Part shown: one piece after another, positions 67 to 11,294 of the stretch
Layout of the letters: each line of letters starts with the position of its first letter
How positions within the stretch are numbered: position 1 is the stretch's first letter
DNA from: Ktedonobacter sp.
Lineage (GTDB): Bacteria; Chloroflexota; Ktedonobacteria; Ktedonobacterales; Ktedonobacteraceae
Direction: 5' to 3'
Assembly: GCA_003450555.1 (NCBI GenBank)
Contig: DMFQ01000281.1
Span: 1 to 11,496 of the forward strand
Length of the DNA stretch: 11,496 bases
Notes under the pieces: model-generated
The model's database searches: none
What the model saw: the letters and a program-made list of their open reading frames with translations, nothing else
Told to the model about the DNA's origin: nothing
Position numbers and translations under genes: made by a program

Positions 67-3000
67 TTAGCGAGCGGCTGCTCCATAGATGAGGCTGTTG
101 AGGATATTGATCAGTTCCTCATCTTGATATGGTTTGACGACGTACGAGTTGGCGCCTAACTGCATGGCACGCTGCTGGTGTTTCGTGGCAGCACGCGAGG
201 TCAGGACAACAAGCGGAAGTGTTCGATATTGTTCCTGAGCACGAACGGTGGAAATCAGTTCATAGCCATCCATGCGAGGCATTTCTATATCGAGCAATAC
301 GGCTGCTGGTGCTTGTCGGGAGATCATTTCCAGGGCCTCTACACCATCACGAGCCATCTGGACTTCCCAACCACGTTGTTTGAGCATATTACTGACCACA
401 CGGCGAACGCTCGGGCTATCGTCCACGACGAGCACGTGTTTTCCGTGCTCTGCCTGGGAAGGAGCTGGCACAGTCGGAGGTTTTGAGGCAGCGGCAGAGG
501 CTGTTTGCTGGCCAAGAATTGGCGAAGTGCCCGGGGTGCCTGCTCTAAAGTTTGTTTCCAGTGCTGGAACGCCCATACCATCACGATAAGCATGGAAAGT
601 TGTCGTAGCTGGAGCGCTCCCGAACAGTTTAGAACGAGTAGATAACAGTTCGATCAGCTCAAGGATGAGGACGACGCGGCCATTACCCATAACGGTTCCA
701 CCAGCTACACCATGAACGCTGCGCAAGTGAGGACCGAGATTCTTCATCACGACATCTAACTTACCCTTAATTTCGTCGACAACCAGAGCTACGCGGTTAC
801 CACCCGCGTTTACCAGGAGTAACGGCGCTTTATCGTCAATTGGGTCTTGCGGTAGCGATAAGAGTTGGGCCAGTGTATTCAATGGATAGAGATCGTTTTG
901 CGCCAGGACAGCCGGTTTGCCAGCAAGCGTTGAGCGCTTGAAGTTATCCAGGCGACCAATGGCTTCGACGAGTACGGTCGGAATAGCGAACTGCTGTTTA
1001 CCAGCCATTACCATCATAGCACCCTGAATGGCCAAGCTGGTGGGGAATTTCATTGTGAATGCAGTGCCCTGGCCTGGCATTGATTCAACGACAAGCGTCC
1101 CTCTAAGGCGAGATACACTATCACGCACGACATCGAGGCCAACACCGCGACCGCTTTCTTCGCTGAGTACTTCGGCAGTTGAGAAACCAGGACGGAAGAT
1201 CAGATCAATTATATCGCTATCAGCGAGCATTTGATCTTCTTGGATGAGTCCACGGGATATTGCGGCGTTGCGGACGCGCTCTGGATCGATACCGGCACCA
1301 TCGTCACGCACGGTGATGACGACCTGGTTTCCCTCATAAGAAGCGGAAAGTTTAATCTGGCCAGCGGGAGACTTGCCCTTCTGTACGCGCACTTCCGGCG
1401 TCTCAATGGCATGGTTTACGGCGTTACGCATCAAGTGGAGCAATGGCCCGGCAATCTCTTCATTGACGGTGCGATCGACTTCTGTATCTACACCTTCTAG
1501 AAGGAACTCGAACTCTTTATGCTGCTTGAGTGCGACGGCACGAGCAGAGCGGTAGAGGCGAGGTGTCATAGTCGAGAGAGGTACCAGGCGCGCTTTCATC
1601 AAACGATCCTGGAAGGTGGTATTGAGACGATTCTCACGAGAGAAGACGCCTTCACAATCTCGTATGACCGCATCCATCTCCGTGCTGAGGGTCGTCATAT
1701 CTGAGATACCCTCACTTAAACCACGAGCAAGCTGATGGAATTCGGTGTACCGGTCGAGTTCCAGTTCATCAAAATCCGCGAGATGTTCAGGTTCGGTGCG
1801 ATTTTTGTTGCCATTTCTGGAGAGTTTGCTTAGTAAGCCTTCGCCGGGCATTACCTGTACTGAATGGCCACTAGGCAGGGTTGCAGCTTCAAATCTGCTC
1901 TCAAGTTTTTGTCCCACATCTCGCAGGCGATTACTACTGATGCCGACATCGGAGACGAGCTGCACGAGGCGATTCACGCGCTCTTCCAGAATGCTGCGAT
2001 TCACGAGCTGTTCACCAAAAAGATTGACGAGTTCATCGAGTTTTTGGAGTCGCACGCGTACACTCAAGTCACTACGAGCGGCACGCTGGGCATTTGTCTC
2101 CGAAGGTTGAGTACCCGAGACGACACTTGCGGCAAAAGAACCGTCATCCATCAGGCCTTCTTCGTTCAGTTCATCGGCGTCAATATCTTCCGCGCCAGCA
2201 TCTGTGAGGGTACTTTGTTCACCGAGCAAATTCATGTAGCGAACGCGAAGCGACTTGACTCTTGCCTCTTCATCCTGTGGATTGATGCCTCTGCCTGTTA
2301 TGAGCAGATCAAGAGTCTCAGCTGTATCGAGGACGAGGCTGAGTACTTCGGGTGTGATCATGGTGGCGCCTTCCATGATACTCTCGAGAAGATCCTCAGA
2401 GATATGGGAAAGATCGGCAATAGCACGGAACCCCATCATAGCCGCGGCTCCCTTAAGTGTATGGGTGGCACGGCGAATGCCCTGAATGAGTTCACGATTT
2501 GTGGGGGATTTCTCTAAAGCGGCGACATGCATTATGATGGTCTGAAGGTGTTCTTCAGCCTCTAAACGGAAAATTTCCGTGGCCTCTTCACCAAAGTCCG
2601 CGGCAAAAGCGGAAGCAGAAGTCAATGGCTTCGGAACAGCAGGTTGAGGATGGGATGGTACGGCAGGATTTAGCGATGGCAAGGCCTCAGGTGCAAGGGA
2701 GACCTGTGGTGGTACAGATGGCAACGGGACTGACACGGTTGGTGGTGGAGTAAAGGTAGACTGTTGTGTTTCATGTACGGGCGCCTGAGTATTGAAGGTG
2801 GGCAGGCCGGTTGCCAGTCGCGCCTGATCAGCAAAGTTTGAAATACGCGGTGCTGATGGCACAGGCGGCACCAGAGTCTGTTGCATAGACGGATTCAGGA
2901 TATCTCCAACGCCATTGGTTATCTGGTTCAGGAAATCCTGGCGGACCTGTATCTCAATTTCACTACGAAGTCTGTCCTCCAGTTCTTGAAGGAATCCATC

Positions 3001-4725
3001 ATCCTCTGACCCGGAGACTCGTTCCTGCAACTGCCGCTTTGCCTCAAACTCCTGGCGAATTTCGCTACGTAATTGCCGTTCTAACTCGGAACGCGCAGCG
3101 AGGGTCAGGGGACGTGTTTCGTACTCGCGGCGTATTTCTTCACGTATCTTCGCCTCTTGTTCGCGGCGATATTCCTCACGAACAGATGCCTCAATTTCGG
3201 CACGAAGGGCCGCGGGATCGCCCTGCCGCTCAAAGGTTACTCGCTCACGCATCGCTTCCGCTTCACGTGCGACGCGCATCTCCCAAGGGGTCCATCCCTG
3301 GTCATGTGTAAAGGTATGCGAAGAGTTTTGGGCCTGCAACTGCTGAAAGACATCGCCGCACGACGCTATAGAGGCAGTTAATTGTCGCAAGGCAATACTG
3401 ATCTGCTCATCTGTCATCTCAACGCCACTGGTAATCTGGGTGAGGAGATCAAGCACCTTCTTCAGTTTGGTATTTGAGACCCACATAACAGACAGGGGCA
3501 GATAGCGCCTCACTTGATCGGGGCTATTGCGGAGATTGAGTCCCATTGCCTCTCCGGCCCAATCCTCCATACGATCAAGGGCATCTCTGGAGCCATCGAG
3601 GAAGCCTTTAAATTCGGTACGCTGGCCTTCGATTATGGTTACAGTCATGCGCAACTGCTGGAGCAACTGCTGGAGAGATGAGGCCTGTGCTTCTATGGAG
3701 CGCGTCTCCTCGTGCATTTCGTTGAAGGCCACTGGGAGCATAAGCTCAGCTGGGGTTATGGGAAGTACGGGAGTAACTGGCGCAGACGGTGTGACGAACG
3801 AGGGTTGTTTGGGATCAGTAGCACTCTCTTGCTCGAAACCTGAATATGAATTGCTCTCATGCTCAAGAGGTGGAGGCGCTACTGGTGATTCAGCAGGATT
3901 ATAGTGAGAAGATACTGACTCTACAGGAGGTACGGGATGGGCGGCTGTAGTAGCAACCAATATTTCCCAGGCACTTGGACTTACCGGTTCTGGTTCTGGC
4001 GCAAGGATTGTTTCAGGTTGGGCAAGTTCAGCAGTCTGTTCTTCAAAATATGAAACTGGTGTTTGTTGTACCTGTTCTGCTTGATAGGTAGGATCAGTTG
4101 GTACAGGTTCAGCAGGTGCAATCTCCTCTGGCCAGGCGCTGTCTTCATCTGTTGTCACAGATGGGATGCGGAAGGAAGCCAAAACTTCGTCAAATGATGG
4201 CAGCGAGGTTATTGAGGAGACCGCTGGTGCAGTTAGCTCAGGTATATCGTCAGTAAAGGAGGGTGGCAGCGAGGCCGACGGGGCCTGTACATTACTAACG
4301 TTGCCATTCGCGGCTGCTTGTGATGAAGAGTCAATATTAGCCCTATAGCGAACATAATCAGCATCATCTTCTGCCATGATAGCTTCTTCGTCGATGCCTT
4401 CATGTATGCCTCGCAGGAGCTGGTGCATTCTCCCAAGAGAGCGTTGCAAAAGCTCGAGGCCTGGAACATCCAGGGTAGATACACCATCTAACGCGTCCCC
4501 GAGGATATCTTCCATACCATGAGCGACGTGTGCCAGACCAGGAAAATCCATCATCGAGGCAGAACCACCAATAGTATGGGTACGACGATACGTCTCCTCT
4601 ATAGCGTCCATGTCGCCGGGAGAGTGTGCCAGGCGTTCAAGGTTTGTTTCAATTTCTGGCAAATAACTATTTACTTCTTCGATAAACGAATCGAGTACTG
4701 AAAGTTTATCAAATGTATTCGACAT
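67..4725 (-). CDS. cheA: Hybrid chemotaxis histidine kinase CheA (ChpA/PilL/PixL type, two Hpt domains plus receiver)
   Basis: Cytoplasmic kinase that takes its signal from the MCP-CheW array, autophosphorylates Hpt histidines and passes phosphate to receivers. In residues counted from the ATG at 4725 (1552 aa): Hpt1 about 1-115 (THTIGGSA, H50); Pro/Ser/Glu-rich linker; charged helical stretch 481-601 rich in Arg and Glu; second Pro-rich linker; Hpt2 about 705-815 (THTLKGAA, H755); dimerisation region from about 885 with a hydrophilic insert; HATPase_c about 1055-1225 (N box around N1101, DDGAG at D1141, GRGVGLDVV); CheW-like domain about 1230-1362; receiver about 1428-1545 (D1435/D1436, phospho-acceptor D1479, KPY). 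CheA proteins are usually 650-750 aa, so this is more than double. The upstream GTG at 4740 would add five residues; neither start has a clear Shine-Dalgarno, and ATG begins at the normal Hpt edge. A terminator-like hairpin precedes the gene, so its expression may be partly separate from the genes upstream. Confidence 0.96.
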   Translation of the reverse strand: MSNTFDKLSVLDSFIEEVNSYLPEIETNLERLAHSPGDMDAIEETYRRTHTIGGSASMMDFPGLAHVAHGMEDILGDALDGVSTLDVPGLELLQRSLGRMHQLLRGIHEGIDEEAIMAEDDADYVRYRANIDSSSQAAANGNVSNVQAPSASLPPSFTDDIPELTAPAVSSITSLPSFDEVLASFRIPSVTTDEDSAWPEEIAPAEPVPTDPTYQAEQVQQTPVSYFEEQTAELAQPETILAPEPEPVSPSAWEILVATTAAHPVPPVESVSSHYNPAESPVAPPPLEHESNSYSGFEQESATDPKQPSFVTPSAPVTPVLPITPAELMLPVAFNEMHEETRSIEAQASSLQQLLQQLRMTVTIIEGQRTEFKGFLDGSRDALDRMEDWAGEAMGLNLRNSPDQVRRYLPLSVMWVSNTKLKKVLDLLTQITSGVEMTDEQISIALRQLTASIASCGDVFQQLQAQNSSHTFTHDQGWTPWEMRVAREAEAMRERVTFERQGDPAALRAEIEASVREEYRREQEAKIREEIRREYETRPLTLAARSELERQLRSEIRQEFEAKRQLQERVSGSEDDGFLQELEDRLRSEIEIQVRQDFLNQITNGVGDILNPSMQQTLVPPVPSAPRISNFADQARLATGLPTFNTQAPVHETQQSTFTPPPTVSVPLPSVPPQVSLAPEALPSLNPAVPSHPQPAVPKPLTSASAFAADFGEEATEIFRLEAEEHLQTIIMHVAALEKSPTNRELIQGIRRATHTLKGAAAMMGFRAIADLSHISEDLLESIMEGATMITPEVLSLVLDTAETLDLLITGRGINPQDEEARVKSLRVRYMNLLGEQSTLTDAGAEDIDADELNEEGLMDDGSFAASVVSGTQPSETNAQRAARSDLSVRVRLQKLDELVNLFGEQLVNRSILEERVNRLVQLVSDVGISSNRLRDVGQKLESRFEAATLPSGHSVQVMPGEGLLSKLSRNGNKNRTEPEHLADFDELELDRYTEFHQLARGLSEGISDMTTLSTEMDAVIRDCEGVFSRENRLNTTFQDRLMKARLVPLSTMTPRLYRSARAVALKQHKEFEFLLEGVDTEVDRTVNEEIAGPLLHLMRNAVNHAIETPEVRVQKGKSPAGQIKLSASYEGNQVVITVRDDGAGIDPERVRNAAISRGLIQEDQMLADSDIIDLIFRPGFSTAEVLSEESGRGVGLDVVRDSVSRLRGTLVVESMPGQGTAFTMKFPTSLAIQGAMMVMAGKQQFAIPTVLVEAIGRLDNFKRSTLAGKPAVLAQNDLYPLNTLAQLLSLPQDPIDDKAPLLLVNAGGNRVALVVDEIKGKLDVVMKNLGPHLRSVHGVAGGTVMGNGRVVLILELIELLSTRSKLFGSAPATTTFHAYRDGMGVPALETNFRAGTPGTSPILGQQTASAAASKPPTVPAPSQAEHGKHVLVVDDSPSVRRVVSNMLKQRGWEVQMARDGVEALEMISRQAPAAVLLDIEMPRMDGYELISTVRAQEQYRTLPLVVLTSRAATKHQQRAMQLGANSYVVKPYQDEELINILNSLIYGAAAR

Positions 4726-4767
4726 TTTGCGCGTACCCACTTTTTCTAGTTACACATTCCAGGATAC

Positions 4768-4887: not shown

Positions 4888-7158
4888 TTACTGACCAAAC
4901 TGCCCATTATTTGGGGAAGAAGGCTGGTCCTGGCCAAACTGTGATTGACTTTGATTCTGCTGAGAACCTCTTTGCCAGCGTTGGTAAGAGGCTTGAGATT
5001 GCGCTGGCTGCTGGTTACGCAGCGAGCCAGAATTTTGTTGTTGATTAGCTCCCTGGTTCGGGGGGAGAAAGCTTTGTTGTCCCTGACTGCTAAAACCAGG
5101 CATTCCACCAAATTGTTGCTGGTCAGCGAAACCCTGTTCTTGCTCAAAGCCACCAAATTCGTCTAAGCCAGGTTGGTTACCGAAGGACTGTCGACCACCA
5201 AAATCTTGCTGATACTGGTTGCCAAACGGCTGCTGTCCACCAAAGCTTTGTTGATTATTAAACGAGGGTTGCGTACCAAATCCCTGCTGGTACTGGTTAT
5301 CAAATGAAGGTTCGCCGAAACCCTGCTGGCCATCGAATGAAGGTTCGCTGAAACCTTGCTGACCATCAAAAGACTGTCCCGCAAACATTTGTGAATTGCC
5401 ATAAGCCTGTTGGCCAAAATCCGGCTGAGCGGCGAAAGATGGCTGACCAAAACCGGGTTGGCTTTGGCTATTGAAAGATTGCGGTGCATTAAAGTTCTGC
5501 TGATTATTAAACGCAGGCTGCCCGAAATCTTGCTGATTATTATAGGAGAACTGACCCTTGCGACTTGAGAGCGCGACCAGCGAAGCGGAATTGCCAATGC
5601 CAGACAGCGGAGGGAAATTGCCAGAGGTATCCTGCGCCCAATCGTTTTCGGAAGCTGGACCAAGGGCTGGCTGGAAGAACTGATTGCCATTTCCTCCCTG
5701 TAGTTCTGTCACAGAGGTCATACTTGGGAATGATGCCATCACGTCGCCGCGTTCCGGTAAGCGGAAGGTTGAGACGGAGGCACGGAGTTGCTCAGTAAGC
5801 TCGGCGAGATAGCTCATGCTAGCAGCGGCTTCCTGGGTACCGATGTTGGTCTGGCGAGTAATGTCGGAGATTTGGCCCATGGAGACAGCAACAGCCTCGG
5901 AGACGGTTGTCTGTTCATTCGCAGCACGAGCAATGCCGTCAATCATTTGCGCCTGCCGTTCTACAGCAGTGAAAATCGAGTTCAATGAACGTCCAGCTTC
6001 ATCAGCGAGTTGCGATCCCTTGACGACTTCTTGCGTGCTATCTTCCATAGCTACAACTGCTTCATATGTATCGCCCTGGATACTCTTGACGAGGGTATCG
6101 ATACGCTTGGTAGACTCGGTTGAACGTTCGGCGAGAAGGCGGATCTCGTCAGCGACGACAGCAAAGCCACGGCCATGTTCACCAGCCATGGCTGACTGAA
6201 TGGCGGCGTTGAGAGCCAGGAGGTTAGTTTGATCCGCGATGTCTTCGATGATACGAACAATTTCACCGATTTCGTTGGAGCGCTCACCAAGACGTTTAAT
6301 TTTCTTCGAGGTCTCCTGAACGTTTTCACGAATGACGACCATACCTTCAATCGTCTGGCGAACGGAGCGTTGACCGCTATTGGCGTTGTGCAAAGCTTCC
6401 TGAGCAGCTTCAGCACTGAGTTGCGCATTGCGTGCCACGTTTTGGATGAAGATAGCCAGCGCTTCGACGGCTTCGGTGGTTTGAGAAATTTGTGACACCT
6501 GAGTCTCAGATGCGTGAGTGAGTTCATCGGAGCGATCAATAATGCGACGAGTAGCGTTCGTCACCTGTACAGCGGTGGTTTGAACGCGTCCGACGACTTT
6601 CGCAAGCTCCTCGATCATATAGTTGAACGAGTCGGCCAGAACGCCGAGGGTATCCGGCGTTACTTCGGCTTGAACGCGCAGGTCGCCATCACCAACTGCG
6701 CTTACTTCCTGGAGCAGTTTCTCGATCTGTGATTGAAGCGCAGCGGCATCATTGCCAGTGGAGCTAAACGTAGCTCCACTTTGCAAGGTTCCTTGACTAT
6801 CAAGAAGTGAATTCAGCGACATCGACAGCATGGCGAACTCGTCGTCACCGTTGAACGTAGCGCGAACAGTGCGATCTCCGCCAGCATAATCACGACAAAC
6901 ATCAACGAGTCCAAGTAGCCGGCTTTTCACTTCGCGCTGAACAAAATAATTGATGGTCATCACGCCGATCAAGGCCACGATTGCACAGGCAACAACAACC
7001 AGTACAAACGTGGCAGCATCGCTGCTAGTCGTAATTCGTTGAGAGACAAATACTCCGAGAAAAGCGATCATAACGACTGGAATTGCTGCTGATAGAAATA
7101 GCCCCCATTGCATCAGCGTATTGACAGTCATTCCGCCTCTATTGCGATCAGGATTCAT
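4888..7158 (-). CDS. PilJ-like methyl-accepting chemotaxis protein with a Q/N/F/G-rich C-terminal tail
   Basis: Inner-membrane chemoreceptor that would control the CheA kinase through CheW. 756 aa: two membrane segments at about 17-38 and 49-71 with only some ten residues between them, so there is no external sensor domain; HAMP about 72-122; a second HAMP-like segment about 145-190; four-helix signalling domain about 215-465. The hairpin tip at 305-332 reads [20 protein letters not shown] then [12 protein letters not shown], with Q-S-M where classical MCPs have E-A-R; I recall this as the PilJ-like version. Residues from about 537 to 756 are low complexity, dominated by Gln, Asn, Phe, Gly and Ser with QQxFG and PSF words. 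No NWETF-type CheR tether ends the protein. The ATG has AGGAGG seven bases upstream. It lies between cheW and cheA, as expected for a shared array. Confidence 0.96.
4891..5550 (-). other. Prion-like, FG-rich low-complexity tail of the MCP
   Basis: This part of the MCP gene encodes about 220 residues with almost no aliphatic or charged residues. Repeated words are QQ-x-[10 protein letters not shown]-x-F and GFGEPSF. Composition is like yeast prion domains or FG-nucleoporin repeats. It follows the signalling domain directly after a short Ser/Thr/Pro-containing linker and should extend into the cytoplasm. The reading frame stays open through the whole stretch to the stop codon at 4888-4890. Confidence 0.85.
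5301..5366 (-). repeat. 33-bp tandem duplication in the MCP tail
   Basis: Bases 5301-5333 and 5334-5366 are near-identical 33-base units, each coding 11 residues of the type [11 protein letters not shown]. The flanking segments are more diverged copies of the same pattern. Recent slippage or unequal recombination is the likely origin. The unit is a multiple of three, so the frame is kept. Confidence 0.75.
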
Positions 7159-7222: not shown

Positions 7223-7906
7223 TCATTGTAGGGCTTCATAACGCTGCATCTTTTCTGAGAAAAGCAGACGCGCGGCATCTATCAACACAATCACACGTTT
7301 ATTGATCAACGCAATCCCAGAAGCATAGGGGATAGCCCATTGTGGTATAGCGGTCTGGCGTACACTTATGCTGGTAATAGCGGTGGGGTGAATTGGTATC
7401 ATTTCACTGACACCGTCCACAACCAGGCAAATCACCATCTCATTGTAATGCACCGACAACAAACGAGTTCGTGGATTGTAGGGCAACTGCTCCATATCCA
7501 GAAAGCTGCGAAAATCGACCACAGAGGCGATTGAGCCGCGCAAATTAATCACACCTCTAATCCAGGAGGTAACATTAGGAACAGGGGTGACATCAACTAA
7601 GCGTTCTACGCCCTGAATATGTTCAGCTTTGAAAGCAAACTCGCGATCCAGGAGTGAGAAGGTCAAATATTGCTCGCTAATAACCTCAGTTGAAGTTTCT
7701 TCCTGAGCGACATTAGCTGAACGAGATTGTGAGATTTGTGCAATCTGGGACTGCAATGCCAGCACAGAAGAAGCGTGGGAGATACGCTGACGCTCACGCG
7801 ATTCTTCAGAGAGACCGTTCAATTGTGTACTTGATTGCTGTGCAGCTGACATAGTTTGTGCAGCCAAAGCATCACGTTGCCGCATTTTTAGATCATCGCT
7901 GGCCAC
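7223..7906 (-). CDS. cheW: CheW-like adaptor protein
   Basis: Scaffold protein that links receptors to CheA in the array. I place the start at the GTG at 7904-7906 (227 aa) because AAGGAG stands seven bases before it; the frame is open back to 7945, but that part has no ribosome site and an atypical Cys/Arg-rich peptide. Residues 1-70 are a polar, Gln/Ser/Ala-rich extension. The CheW domain runs from about 73 to 215, with recognisable pieces YLTFSLLDREFAFKAEHIQG, WIRGVINLRGSIASVVDFR and, near the end, an INKRVIVLIDAARLL strand-helix. About 64 bases separate it from the MCP gene downstream, in the usual order. The N-terminal extension is longer than in E. coli-type CheW (about 165 aa). Confidence 0.93.
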   Translation of the reverse strand: MASDDLKMRQRDALAAQTMSAAQQSSTQLNGLSEESRERQRISHASSVLALQSQIAQISQSRSANVAQEETSTEVISEQYLTFSLLDREFAFKAEHIQGVERLVDVTPVPNVTSWIRGVINLRGSIASVVDFRSFLDMEQLPYNPRTRLLSVHYNEMVICLVVDGVSEMIPIHPTAITSISVRQTAIPQWAIPYASGIALINKRVIVLIDAARLLFSEKMQRYEALQ

Positions 7907-7913
7907 AAAATAA

Positions 7914-7919
7914 CTCCTT
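7914..7919 (-). promoter_or_regulatory. Ribosome binding site deciding the cheW GTG start
   Basis: AAGGAG on the minus strand, seven bases before GTG at 7904-7906. It shows that translation begins 13 codons inside the longest open frame. Confidence 0.8.
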
Positions 7920-7957
7920 GGGCGACAACACCGATCGCCGGGCACAATTTTCTAAAG

Positions 7958-7994: not shown

Positions 7995-8363
7995 TTATAC
8001 CAGGCTGCGCACGCTAGCCACTAATTCATCGCTATTAAAAGGCTTTGTTATGTACAGGTCTGCGCCTTGCCTTAATCCCCATGATCTGTCGAGGGGAGTA
8101 TTTTTACTTGTTAACAAAATAATTGGGATGTGTCTGCTTGCTTCTAAACTTTTGAGTTTACGACACAGCTGAAAACCGTTTTGTTTCGGTAAGACGACAT
8201 CTAATACAATACATTGTGGGTGTTCTCTAAACACTTTTTCGATAGCTTCATCGCCATCAACAGCGGTAACCACATCAAAGCCACTATTACGAAGTGGAGC
8301 GACAATCATGGTCAACTCTGTCCAGCTATCATCTACTACGAGAATCTTCTGCCCAGGCATCAT
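7995..8363 (-). CDS. PilH/PixH-type single-domain response regulator
   Basis: CheY-like receiver of 122 aa with no output domain, an expected phosphate acceptor for the CheA kinase of the cluster. The acidic pair is D11/D12, the phospho-acceptor D55 in IVLDVVLP, the switch threonine T85 and the lysine K107 in ITKPF. The segment RSWGLRQGADLYITKPF resembles the WG-x-RQGA pattern I associate with PilH and its cyanobacterial relatives. Two ATG codons stand side by side (8363 and 8360). A weak ribosome site (GGAAAGG) lies seven bases upstream, and TATAAT falls between it and the start. The gene is 112 bases after the PilG-like gene and 88 bases before the cheW GTG. Confidence 0.92.
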   Translation of the reverse strand: MMPGQKILVVDDSWTELTMIVAPLRNSGFDVVTAVDGDEAIEKVFREHPQCIVLDVVLPKQNGFQLCRKLKSLEASRHIPIILLTSKNTPLDRSWGLRQGADLYITKPFNSDELVASVRSLV

Positions 8364-8475: not shown

Positions 8476-8907
8476 CTAGCCGCGACGTCGCAGGCGAGTG
8501 CGCATCCCTTCATGTTGTGGAGGCATACGTTCTTGCCAGTTCACAAGATGTTTTTTTACGGTTTGTACCAGTTCCACCGAGTCAAAAGGTTTTGTCAGGT
8601 ATTCCGTTGAGCCAGCGAGCCGACCACGCATCTTGTCGAATAGACCATCCTTCCCACTGAGCATAATAATCGGTATTTGACGAAACTGCAAGTTTTTGCG
8701 AATAATCTGGCAAATATGGTACCCATCCATACGGGGCAACTGTATATCAAGCAGGATTACAGCGGGCATTTCGTCGGCAACCGAGGTGAGAGCGCTCAGA
8801 CCATCTCCAGCGGTAATCACTCTAATATGCTCCCGTTGCAGGGTCATTTGGACGATCTTGCGCACAGTGGGACTATCATCCACAACTAGTACTGTCGGTT
8901 CAGCCAT
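8476..8907 (-). CDS. PilG/PixG-type response regulator receiver
   Basis: CheY-like receiver of 143 aa. The acidic pair is D10/D11, phospho-acceptor D54 in ILLDIQLPRMDGY, S84 at the switch position and K106 in LTKPF. The long signature LSGKDGLFDKMRGRLAGS followed by TEYLTKPF is characteristic of the PilG/PatA/PixG receiver group. A short Arg-rich tail follows the domain (about 122-143). The start is the ATG at 8905-8907, with AGGAGG eight bases upstream; a TTG one codon earlier is possible but less likely. The ATG overlaps the stop of the PATAN gene as TGATG, so translation of the two is coupled and the products are probably made in similar amounts and may act together. Confidence 0.93.
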   Translation of the reverse strand: MAEPTVLVVDDSPTVRKIVQMTLQREHIRVITAGDGLSALTSVADEMPAVILLDIQLPRMDGYHICQIIRKNLQFRQIPIIMLSGKDGLFDKMRGRLAGSTEYLTKPFDSVELVQTVKKHLVNWQERMPPQHEGMRTRLRRRG

Positions 8908-10304
8908 CAAATAGACCTCCTATGTGGCTCAGGTGACCTGTAGGGACCACCTTCATTTTCAGGGACATGATTCCAATTTTGTATGATACCCATGTGAGTA
9001 GGTTGCATGACATCATGGCCACGAGTTACGTGCGTGTTGCGTTGGGCTCGATAGACCTGATATTGATGTATCTCCTGATCTATTTCCGTCAAGAAGGCCT
9101 TCCAGGCGAAATTAAGGTTGCGCCCGGTATGTGAATTGCCTACCTCATCGCGTAACAATTCCGCGAAAACCATGCGTAAGAAAGATGCAAGACCGAGTAC
9201 GGCTTCCCAATAAAACTCTTCTAACTGCTCTCCTTTTACTAATTTATCGAGGGTAAGAATGCTGGCACAATCAAGTTTCCCGTGAGTAAATTCAATAGTT
9301 TCCAGGATGGGGTATTGTTGCTTCGATAGAAGTTGGAACTGGTTGGCGAAACGGCGCTCTAAATAGCGTACGACCTCCGCGTAGGGTACCTGTCCTCGTC
9401 CGCGTAGACTTTTCGCATATCTACTATGATGGAACAACAAGCCGTTGATGCAATCGGAGAGGACGGTAACGAGGCCAAGAAGGTGTTGTTCCGGGTTGGA
9501 AGACTGATGCTGCCGTGTTAATGCTGTCTGGCACCTGATAATAAGGTTTGAAATGTCCTGTTGTACCTCGGTCTCCAGGGCAGTATCAACGATTTCGATG
9601 AGGCGAAGTTCGAGTAGACGGGTCATGATGCGTGCGACGCGTGCCTCGGGGGTCATCAAAACCAAGGCGATGGCCTGGAGAGGTAGTTCTCCGTTCGAGA
9701 GGCAGAGCACTTCTATATATTCCTGGCTCAACCCGAGGCTACGCACATCATTATGGATTTCAGGCAGCCAGCGAGCGACGGTTGTCCGCGTCAAATGGAT
9801 CTCACCCATCTCCTCCCATTCATCTGCTTGACGTAAAGCTTCAAGGAGGGTCGAGTCGATGTCGAGCGGCTGCATTCTGTTTTCCATGGGAACAAGTTGA
9901 CGATGAAAGGCAAAACGGCCATCGACCCAACGCAAGGCGTGACTGATCGACTGAGTGACGCCAAATTCCAAGCGGCGCTGCATTTCGGCGGCACTCATCC
10001 AATTGCGTTCAACGAGCAACGCCAAGGCAACCTGTGTATTGCCGCTCGCACGCTCACGCACTGCTTGAGCGCGCTGAGGATCCAGTTTATTGACGAGACA
10101 GAGCATAACAAGCAAATCTGGTTGCGGCACGCCTTCTTCGCGCAATGCGACGATCTGGCCCTTACGAAGGCTGATAGAGAGAGTTTCTGGTCCTGAATGG
10201 ACGAAGAGCGTGCCTGTTTTTCCACTCAGTGCGAGCATTTTCAGGATAGATTGGAGACCTAATGTTTGTAAGTCTCCATCCATAATGCGGTCTTGCTGCT
10301 CCAT
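8907..10304 (-). CDS. PATAN (DUF4388) domain protein
   Basis: The first about 90 residues match the PATAN/DUF4388 pattern: a DGDLQTLGLQSILKMLALSG helix, then GTLFV, then LRKGQIVAL. A helical extension with WVDGRFAFH follows to about 165, and a winged-helix-like segment spans about 195-240 (LPLQAIALVL through LLELRLIEIVD). Residues about 245-425 form a helical region I cannot assign, and the last 40 are polar. In PatA and PixG of cyanobacteria a PATAN domain is joined to a receiver; here the protein (465 aa) has none, but a PilG-type receiver gene follows with a TGATG overlap. The ATG at 10304 has GAAGG close upstream; the frame stays open to 10331. It probably acts as a cytoplasmic output or adaptor of the chemosensory pathway; the biochemical role is unknown. 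Confidence 0.85.
   Translation of the reverse strand: MEQQDRIMDGDLQTLGLQSILKMLALSGKTGTLFVHSGPETLSISLRKGQIVALREEGVPQPDLLVMLCLVNKLDPQRAQAVRERASGNTQVALALLVERNWMSAAEMQRRLEFGVTQSISHALRWVDGRFAFHRQLVPMENRMQPLDIDSTLLEALRQADEWEEMGEIHLTRTTVARWLPEIHNDVRSLGLSQEYIEVLCLSNGELPLQAIALVLMTPEARVARIMTRLLELRLIEIVDTALETEVQQDISNLIIRCQTALTRQHQSSNPEQHLLGLVTVLSDCINGLLFHHSRYAKSLRGRGQVPYAEVVRYLERRFANQFQLLSKQQYPILETIEFTHGKLDCASILTLDKLVKGEQLEEFYWEAVLGLASFLRMVFAELLRDEVGNSHTGRNLNFAWKAFLTEIDQEIHQYQVYRAQRNTHVTRGHDVMQPTHMGIIQNWNHVPENEGGPYRSPEPHRRSI
8916..8921 (-). promoter_or_regulatory. Ribosome binding site of the PilG-like gene inside the PATAN gene
   Basis: AGGAGG on the minus strand lies within the last codons of the PATAN reading frame, eight bases before the ATG at 8907. 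With the TGATG overlap this points to coupled translation with independent re-loading of ribosomes. Confidence 0.8.
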
Positions 10305-10435
10305 GGTTCCTTCTATTCCTTTCCCGGTCAAGCGTGCGAGTCAAATGCTCTGCTCTATCACACACTGCCACCTGCAATGCTCTGAAAAAGTATTCCATTC
10401 TCTTCTAGTTTGGACGAAAGAGAGAGGAAGAAGTA

Positions 10436-11294
10436 TCAGGCCCTGTTCAAACATACCTGCTCAATAGCGGAGAGGAGGTGATCGATGTTGAAGGGTTTAT
10501 CAACGTACGCCACCTGATTGCCGCGCATATACGAGCGGTTCCACGGGACTTCAAGCTGAGTTAAGGCACTCATTATGACAAAAGCGGGCCTGGCATGCAA
10601 TGAGGCAGCGTTTAGACAGCGCATGACCTGGTAGCCATTCATCCAGGGCATGATCAAGTCTGTAACGATACAATGTGGTTTCCAATCGAGGCATTGTTCC
10701 AGTGCCTCTAATCCATCATGCGCTACAGCGACTTCATAGTTCGATTCAAAAATAAGACACTGCTCCAACCGCGCTGGCAATTGCCACGTCGTCATCCACG
10801 ACCAAGATACGTAATTTTTCATTCAAAGGTTTAATTGCTTCGCGCTCAAGCAGAAGCCTTTGCAATACTTGTAAATAGCGCTGCAAGCGGCCCATCTCAA
10901 AAGGTGTTTGCAACAGCGCTACGGCCCCTATTTGCTCGAGCGTTGAACGAGAGACGGAATGGCTGCTGAGGGCAATTTTCAGGCGAACATGAGGCCAGCG
11001 TTGCTCATATTTCTTTATACTATTCCCTACCAACGATAGTGGTGCAACGTTTTCTTTGACAGGTACCCGTACGCGAGTGCGCTCATTGCCCATTCCCATA
11101 GCTATACGAGAAGCTTCATCCAGGTCAAACAATAAAATGTCGCCTTCGGCTTCGCTCCCCGACAAAGCGGAGGAGGGTAGTACGATGGCTTCATAGCCCC
11201 AGTTTTGTATATTTGTGGTGAGAACATGCTCAAAGCTGTTATGCTGTCCAATGATCAGCACGCGAAGTTTTGGGCATCTTCGTGGAGATTGCAT
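10436..11294 (-). pseudogene. Tandem receiver protein (pseudo-receiver plus receiver) broken by a frameshift
   Basis: The open frame from the ATG at 11294 runs 182 codons. Residues 10-150 look like a degenerate receiver: VLIIGQ has no acidic pair, LLFDLDEA keeps a possible acceptor Asp (D57), and QTPFE has Gln in place of the invariant Lys. A second receiver starts at about 161 (LRILVVDDDVAIAS), but the frame is lost near 10770-10775 and stops at TGA. The other frame (10436 to about 10773) continues it with RLEQCLIFESNYEVAVAHDG, then IVTDLIMPWMNGY, MSALT and VDKPF. One extra base in AGCGCGG, or two missing, explains the break; joining the frames gives a receiver of normal length. AGAGGA stands nine bases before the ATG. 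It may be a true lesion, a sequencing error or, less likely, programmed frameshifting. Confidence 0.8.

What the first reader, a model, noticed from the sequence alone, without database searches (positions are those of the whole stretch)
4891..5550. Chemoreceptor with a prion-like / FG-repeat cytoplasmic tail
About 220 residues rich in Gln, Asn, Phe, Gly and Ser are attached to the C-terminus of an otherwise normal PilJ-like receptor. Spaced Phe in a Gln/Asn/Gly background is the composition of phase-separating or amyloid-forming domains. Placed at the free cytoplasmic end of a clustering receptor, it could strengthen array assembly, form a condensate or keep a memory state. I know of no MCP family defined by such a tail.
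Basis: partly seen in the sequence, partly recalled or inferred. Interest (0 to 1): 0.75.

Follow-up and report, generated by a model that had tools for sequence, protein, structure and literature searches.

The report
Sticky disordered tail on bacterial chemoreceptor
A chemoreceptor-like protein of soil bacteria of the class Ktedonobacteria ends in a long, apparently unstructured, prion-like tail that its relatives in the class keep, which suggests that these bacteria organise or tune a signalling cluster with a sticky protein tail.

Summary
The 756-aa receptor (window 4891-7158, minus strand) is two membrane helices, HAMP and an MCP signalling hairpin, then 288 residues without predicted structure; the last 220 are 75% Q, N, G, F and S. 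All 42 orthologues read, one per genome out of 47 class genomes searched, carry a tail (113-318 aa). The 66 kept matches not labelled Ktedonobacteria have at most 38 aa. The tail has two modules: a proximal W and phi-P-x-L-P element (37 of 42, shuffled mean 0.7), changed in the window's own subclade, and a distal stretch with Phe stickers in the window's family, mainly Tyr in a sister family. dN/dS indicates purifying selection (approximate). Amyloid is not favoured (recalled PAPA 0.02). Best reading: a disordered sticker-and-spacer tail that packs and tunes receptor clusters, plus a docking motif for an unknown partner. A CheR/CheB tether is unlikely as the general role: five tailed genomes showed neither enzyme. 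Flagellin is absent in 21 of 21 non-f2 genomes and no PilT passes the cut-off. Phase separation, memory and sensing are untested. New variant of a known kind.

The parts
4891..5754 (-). Whole disordered tail, residues 469-756 (288 aa, 31.2 kDa, pI about 4.05)
   Evidence: Starts after VSTFRLP; AlphaFold2 pLDDT 22-30 from residue 471, no secondary structure; mass and pI
4891..5550 (-).
   Evidence: Composition; prion-like score and background; dN/dS of the whole tail
5590..5643 (-). Proximal element, residues 506-523: [18 protein letters not shown]; class form is W followed within about 12 residues by phi-P-x-L-P; the second half is changed in this window's subclade
   Evidence: phi-P-x-L-P in 37 of 42 orthologue tails against a shuffled mean of 0.7, maximum 4; W at tail offset 25-45 in 40 of 42 (counted from the listing); window itself has FPPLS
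5755..7158 (-). Receptor core, residues 1-468: TM1 about 12-41, loop of about 6 residues, TM2 from about 48, HAMP, MCP signalling hairpin
   Evidence: Pfam HAMP and MCPsignal; secondary structure; N-termini compared by eye
70..4740 (-). CheA-type kinase (two Hpt stretches, HATPase_c, CheW, receiver)
   Evidence: Pfam; CheA-sized frame downstream in relatives
7226..7945 (-). CheW-type adaptor with an N-terminal extension of about 90 aa
   Evidence: Pfam (CheW domain 92-228)
7998..8363 (-). CheY-like receiver
   Evidence: Pfam
8479..8910 (-). CheY-like receiver
   Evidence: Pfam
8910..10331 (-). DUF4388 (PATAN-type, name recalled) regulator
   Evidence: Pfam

Best explanation
The gene encodes a chemoreceptor-type protein, without an extracellular sensor domain, of a chemosensory operon (PATAN-type regulator, two CheY, CheW, MCP, CheA). 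Its C-terminus is a conserved disordered tail with two parts: a short docking element (W...phi-P-x-L-P) for an unidentified partner, and a long, nearly lysine-free, acidic sticker-and-spacer region (Phe or Tyr stickers in Q/N/G/S/P spacers). Anchored at the membrane-proximal end of each receptor, many tails would be crowded between membrane and CheA/CheW base plate. There they would make weak multivalent contacts that promote or tune receptor clustering and so the cooperativity of kinase control. Shown here: sequence, conservation, predicted disorder, purifying selection (approximate), operon. Inferred: array formation, crowding, multivalent contacts, effect on clustering, docking role of the motif.
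For: Tail in 42 of 42 class orthologues read; none over 38 aa in the 66 kept matches not labelled Ktedonobacteria, and 6 and 18 aa in the only two matches outside the order among 201 phylum genomes, at most five candidates scored in each. Composition kept while sequence diverges: in 110 of 120 listed homologues median aromatic 12.9%, Q+N 27.4%, lysine count median 0, maximum 3. dN/dS of the tail 0.09-0.36 in 11 pairs. In an alignment of 54 rows (window plus 53 of the 120) W507 and F550 are invariant, and F515, F627, F633 and F645 at 90% or more. Aromatic columns more conserved than others in 17 close homologues (0.83 against 0.73, permutation p 0.03). Gaps between aromatics more even than random in 28 of 30 tails, 8 of 30 at p<0.05. 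Disorder. Crowding: with a recalled 12-nm hexagonal lattice and 12 monomers per cell the tails would reach 200-330 mg/mL.
Against: No experiment. The window tail alone is not significantly evenly spaced (p 0.06). In two orthologues of the flagellated family f2 the tail is Pro/Met/Gly-rich with few aromatics (L130, L132), and the prion-like score is only 15.8 in L006, 18.8 in L010, 19.2 in L029 and 17.4 in L030, so sticker strength is not uniform. Paralogous receptors in the same class have other, less prion-like tails, so a disordered tail may be partly a lineage habit. Array formation is assumed from the family. The partner of the proximal element is unknown; the window's subclade has lost half of it, and only 57 of 110 closer homologues match a looser FPxLP pattern, though 110 of 110 keep W followed by F/L/Y and P/S. 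NG86 on repetitive, gap-rich tails is rough, and tail dS exceeds core dS in all 11 pairs. Genomes are related, so counts are not independent events.
Confidence: 0.5

Rival explanations
1. Docking tether: the tail is mainly a long flexible arm that presents the W...phi-P-x-L-P element (and C-terminal RW or PF elements of the window's family) to a partner, like the E. coli pentapeptide tether but for a partner other than CheR/CheB; the Q/N/F filler only sets length and solubility.
For: phi-P-x-L-P is the one tail element seen in all four families (37 of 42). Tail length varies 113-318 aa. MCP C-terminal tethers that recruit CheR/CheB are established (PMC10561060, passages read).
Against: Filler composition is itself kept, aromatic positions are conserved, and no partner was identified. 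The exact element is missing in the window's subclade and matched in only 57 of 110 closer homologues. CheR and CheB are both undetected in 5 of 25 genomes, all five with the tail.
Confidence: 0.27
2. Neutral low-complexity growth: replication slippage extended a tolerated C-terminal end in this class, and composition follows local repeat expansion without a dedicated function.
For: Lineage-specific repeat runs, for example GFNGQQ in L014, L022, L023 and YGQPDYGQP in L027; one TRF array in the window; other MCPs of the class also have unstructured-looking tails.
Against: dN/dS 0.09-0.36, retention in 42 of 42 orthologues read, conserved W, phi-P-x-L-P and Phe positions, and only 0 of 353 and 1 of 345 sampled frames of two relatives with a score of 24 or more.
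Confidence: 0.13
3. Prion or amyloid memory element: the tail converts to a self-templating state that stores receptor history.
For: Yeast-prion-like composition; recalled PAPA above 0.05 in 8 of 30 tails.
Against: Window PAPA 0.02; 22 of 30 tails, window included, below the recalled cut-off; 7-19% Pro in the tails.
Confidence: 0.05

Closest known systems
Enteric Tar/Tsr C-terminal linker with NWETF pentapeptide (CheR/CheB tether)
   Same: An unstructured extension of an MCP C-terminal helix, used to hold partners (PMC10561060, passages read)
   Different: About 30 residues there against 288 here; the window tail ends in NGQFGQ, without NWETF; prion-like aromatic composition; also present in genomes where CheR and CheB were not detected
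Cyanobacterial hmp / tax3 / pix chemotaxis-like operons (type IV pilus control)
   Same: Chemotaxis-like systems with two response regulators, one of them (PixG) with a PATAN domain, as the review puts it (PMC12288463, passages read)
   Different: No PilT over the cut-off in 25 genomes; receptor without a sensor domain; tails of cyanobacterial receptors were not compared here
Pseudomonas Chp PilJ receptor
   Same: HAMP-MCP receptor in a Pil-Chp-like gene set (recalled)
   Different: No periplasmic domain found, extra disordered tail; the kept matches from Gammaproteobacteria end within 15 residues of the hairpin. PilJ itself was not fetched
Prion-like, sticker-and-spacer low-complexity domains of eukaryotic condensate proteins (recalled)
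   Same: Aromatics spaced in Q/N/G/S background, almost no Lys, few aliphatic residues
   Different: On a membrane chemoreceptor, bacterial, acidic (pI 4.05), few Arg; phase behaviour untested

Membership tests
Methyl-accepting chemotaxis protein (MCP) | MCPsignal domain with conserved hairpin | tested here: met
   PF00015 E 4.7e-44, residues 250-434; solved MCP relatives by sequence
Methyl-accepting chemotaxis protein (MCP) | HAMP linker and transmembrane helices | tested here: met
   PF00672; two N-terminal hydrophobic helices
Methyl-accepting chemotaxis protein (MCP) | Genome encodes CheR and CheB for methylation | tested here: inconclusive
   Window genome has one partial CheR and one partial CheB match, close together on contig C473; both undetected in 5 of 25 genomes
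PilJ receptor | Periplasmic sensor domain | tested here: not met
   Pfam finds HAMP and MCPsignal only; about 6 residues between the first two helices; N-termini of 30 aligned orthologues leave room for a short loop only, judged by eye
Type IV pilus (Tfp) chemosensory system | PilT retraction ATPase in the genome | tested here: not met
   0 of 25 genomes over the TIGR01420 cut-off; 17 of 25 have weak matches, best 60 bits against 319
Type IV pilus (Tfp) chemosensory system | Operon with two CheY, CheW, MCP, CheA | tested here: met
   Window gene order
Flagellar chemotaxis | Flagellin in the genome | tested here: not met
   0 of 21 genomes of families f1, f3, f4, the window's included; present in 4 of 4 f2 genomes
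CheR/CheB tether (pentapeptide receptor) | C-terminal NWETF-like pentapeptide | tested here: not met
   C-termini read by eye; the window ends NGQFGQ
Prion-like domain | Yeast-prion-like composition over at least 60 residues | tested here: met
   Score 37.6 against background mean -8.3 (recalled parameters)
Prion-like domain | Predicted amyloid propensity (PAPA over 0.05, recalled) | tested here: not met
   0.02 in the window; 8 of 30 tails pass
Phase-separating condensate scaffold | Forms a dense phase in vitro or in cells | not testable with these tools
   Needs experiment

The most novel reading that the evidence does not exclude
The tail is the sensor. The receptor has no extracellular domain, sits in families without detected flagellin or a PilT over the cut-off, and persists in genomes where CheR and CheB were not found. 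A membrane-bound, aromatic, acidic low-complexity layer whose condensation depends on temperature, water activity, pH or a cytoplasmic ligand would then set array packing and kinase output, so that collapse of a disordered tail replaces ligand binding and methylation as the input of a chemosensory array.
Probability: 0.15. Interest if true: 0.88.

Novelty: new variant of a known kind. Interest (0 to 1): 0.6.

Why it matters
Chemoreceptor arrays are a textbook case of order: a crystalline lattice tuned by methylation. A bacterial class keeping a long prion-like tail on its operon-linked receptor would add disordered, multivalent contacts as a tuning layer, on a receptor that has no extracellular sensor domain and, in several genomes, no detected methylation enzymes. 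It gives a clean comparison for testing what a sticker-and-spacer tail does to a defined signalling machine: tailed class against tail-less relatives, Phe family against Tyr family.

Tried and rejected
Amyloid or prion memory: ranked low because recalled PAPA is below the cut-off in the window and in 22 of 30 tails (window included), and Pro is frequent. CheR/CheB tether as the general role: rejected because five tailed genomes showed neither enzyme and no NWETF-like end was seen. Methylation helices of CheR-plus and CheR-minus genomes were compared by eye in 18 orthologues; no clear difference. Flagellar control: flagellin undetected in 21 of 21 genomes of families f1, f3, f4. Type IV pilus control by retraction: no PilT over the cut-off; a 2026 paper says type IV pili are largely absent in Ktedonobacteraceae but broadly present in the families JADMIN01 and JACDGC01 (PMC13374853, two passages read), and I did not match f2-f4 to those names, so a pilus role outside Ktedonobacteraceae is not excluded. 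Co-condensation with CheA: the window CheA and CheW are not prion-like (-3.2 and 1.9), though one relative's CheA is. Even spacing of aromatics in the window itself: p 0.06 only. The Pfam Collagen hit in the K. racemifer tail is taken as a composition match, not homology. NCBIfam gave for the receptor only hits far below their cut-offs. Prior description: paper searches listed no paper on a prion-like or long low-complexity chemoreceptor tail by title or shown abstract (searches show 20 of 31, 24 and 73 papers); only open-licence PMC papers are held, so this is weak evidence of absence. Dropped rows: 10 of 120 homologues without the exact anchor were left out of the composition counts (their printed last 40 residues look tail-like). 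In one search the tail length of L079 was a regex artefact; one search repeats the measurement by alignment. In one search the tail cut for L002 and L183-L187 began inside the signalling domain, so those lengths are overstated there. L008 is cut by its contig end. In one search two Ktedonobacterial paralogues (L054, L065) were counted with Ktedonobacteria; L045 and L046 are labelled only 'Chloroflexi bacterium' and were counted as outside. For the 54-row alignment I gave 53 of the 120 homologues.

Full report
What was checked. The finding's coordinates, 4891-5550 on the minus strand, are residues 537-756 of a single 756-aa open frame. Pfam finds HAMP (two stretches; best 143-185) and MCPsignal (250-434) and nothing in the tail. 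The 220 residues are 75% Q, N, G, F and S. The feature really begins at residue 469, directly after VSTFRLP, where the signalling helix ends, so it is 288 residues, 31.2 kDa and pI about 4.05. AlphaFold2 on a 54-row alignment gives helices up to residue 463 and no secondary structure after it, with pLDDT 22-30 per block of ten from residue 471; the whole model is of modest quality (mean 48.5), so only the secondary structure and the contrast are used.

Where it comes from. The window lies in a 4.36-Mb draft genome. Its relatives include Ktedonobacter racemifer, K. robiniae, Dictyobacter vulcani, Tengunoibacter tsumagoiensis and Thermosporothrix hazakensis, so it belongs to the Ktedonobacteria (Chloroflexota). 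The genes around it, all on the minus strand, are a receiver-like gene, a DUF4388 (PATAN-type) regulator, two CheY-type receivers, CheW, the receptor and a 1557-aa CheA with receiver. In the 12 loci L033-L044, judged by frame length and start, a CheW-sized frame precedes the receptor and CheA-sized coding sequence follows it in 12 of 12 (split in L034 and L035, cut by the contig end in L037), and a frame starting like the window's PATAN gene lies upstream in 9 of 12. No domain scan was run on these neighbours.

Is it more than chance? A PLAAC-like 60-residue log-odds (frequencies recalled) gives 37.6 for the window protein and 15.8-55.6 for 30 orthologues, window included. Among 819 frames of more than 150 aa from loci L033-L112, mean -8.3, the nine best are orthologues of this receptor and the tenth is a CheA of Tengunoibacter. 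In 20 stretches of 20 kb each from two relatives held as one contig, 0 of 353 and 1 of 345 frames reach 24. The composition is therefore rare, though not unique, in these genomes. A search with the tail alone finds 245 proteins; all of the 120 listed carry PF00015.

Conservation. 42 of 47 class genomes have an orthologue at E 1e-100 or better; the five without are four genomes of family f2 and one draft of family f1. Reading one orthologue per genome, 42 of 42 have a tail of 113-318 aa (one, L008, is cut by its contig end). In family f1 it is F-rich, in the one f3 genome mixed, in f4 mainly Y-rich, and in two f2 orthologues P/M/G-rich with few aromatics. Of the 80 matches kept from the genome collection, 66 are not labelled Ktedonobacteria; they have at most 38 residues after the hairpin, median -2, that is, they end with it. 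In 201 phylum genomes (at most five candidates scored each) only two outside the order match at 1e-50, with 6 and 18 residues. So the tail most likely arose on the line to Ktedonobacteria and was then kept. A TIR-like paralogue in G027, whose MCP part matches the window core at 71% identity, has no tail, so the signalling fold does not need one.

Two modules. Near its start the tail has a Trp at offset 25-45 in 40 of 42 (counted from the listing), followed within about 12 residues by phi-P-x-L-P in most. The latter is present within the first 75 residues in 37 of 42 tails, against a mean of 0.7 and a maximum of 4 in 500 shuffles. The common f1 form is [20 protein letters not shown]; f4 has forms such as LPALPAAP and f2 IPALPPG or LPALPPG. 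Against it: the window and its nearest relatives keep FPPL but have lost the second half, and among 110 homologous tails, found by similarity to the window's tail, only 57 match a looser FPxLP pattern, while 110 of 110 keep W followed by F/L/Y and P/S. The distal module keeps composition: in the same 110 tails (10 of 120 homologues dropped for lack of the exact anchor) aromatics are 9-15%, Q+N 19-34%, and Lys 0-3 residues.

Selection. NG86 dN/dS of the tail is 0.09-0.36 in 11 pairs, against 0.01-0.13 in the core. That is purifying selection in the tail, weaker than in the core in 10 of 11 pairs; alignment of repeats and high dS (above core dS in all 11) make it approximate. Aromatic columns are better conserved than the others in 17 close homologues (0.83 against 0.73, p 0.03). 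Gaps between aromatics are more even than random in 28 of 30 tails, 8 of 30 at p<0.05, but the window itself only at p 0.06, and the tails are related.

Function. By the known fold of MCPs (recalled) the C-terminus returns to the membrane-proximal end of the hairpin. With a recalled 12-nm hexagonal lattice, 12 monomers per cell and 15-25 nm height, the tails would reach 200-330 mg/mL. If this receptor forms a normal array, its tails cannot avoid each other, and conserved aromatic stickers would act there. I therefore think it most likely that the tail tunes receptor packing and cooperativity, with the proximal element docking a partner. Neither is shown. The established use of an MCP C-terminal extension is a roughly 30-residue linker with a CheR/CheB-binding pentapeptide (PMC10561060, passages read). 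Here the end is not of that type, and in G008, G010, G013, G026 and G027, all tailed, neither CheR nor CheB was found; in most of the other 20 genomes, the window's among them, both have matches.

Output. Flagellin is undetected in 21 of 21 genomes of families f1, f3 and f4 and present in 4 of 4 of f2. No PilT passes the cut-off in 25; 17 have weak matches of at most 60 bits. A 2026 paper reports type IV pili largely absent in Ktedonobacteraceae, broadly present in JADMIN01 and JACDGC01, and flagellar and chemotaxis genes enriched in JACDGC01 (PMC13374853, two passages read). The operon type is that of cyanobacterial pilus-control systems (PMC12288463, passages read), but here its output is unknown. 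The receptor has about six residues between its first two helices, so its input is unknown too. That is why a tail-as-sensor reading is kept as the novel case.

Verdict. Observation confirmed and extended to a class-wide, selected, two-module disordered tail; condensate and memory claims remain untested, amyloid is not favoured.

Noticed in passing
L133 736-2397 (+), same place as L182: A fusion of a TIR-like domain (PF13676, 20.6 bits, below its cut-off of 28) with HAMP and an MCP signalling part whose match to the window receptor core is 71% identical, without any tail.
   Followed up: partly
L038 10184-14830: The CheA beside the tailed receptor of Tengunoibacter tsumagoiensis carries a tandem YYPNAQNEQS-type insert with a prion-like score of 26.6; the window's CheA does not.
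   Followed up: partly
window 10439-11294: The receiver-like gene at the operon start is split into two overlapping frames (182 and 128 aa) here; L033 and L034 show one 282-aa frame with a similar start at the corresponding place. Described only.
   Followed up: no
window 5590-5622: The window's subclade has replaced the second half of the otherwise common NFPPLPEP element ([10 protein letters not shown]); P0003, P0005 and P0006 are similar and P0004 has a short deletion.
   Followed up: partly
L166 1516-2382 (-): A 289-aa Y/Q/N/P-rich open frame without Pfam match in a relative held as one contig (score 33.2), another prion-like protein in the class.
   Followed up: no
L054, L065, L002, L183-L187: Paralogous Ktedonobacterial MCPs also carry unstructured-looking C-terminal tails (107 and 89 aa in L054 and L065; the others not measured exactly), less prion-like in composition.
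   Followed up: partly
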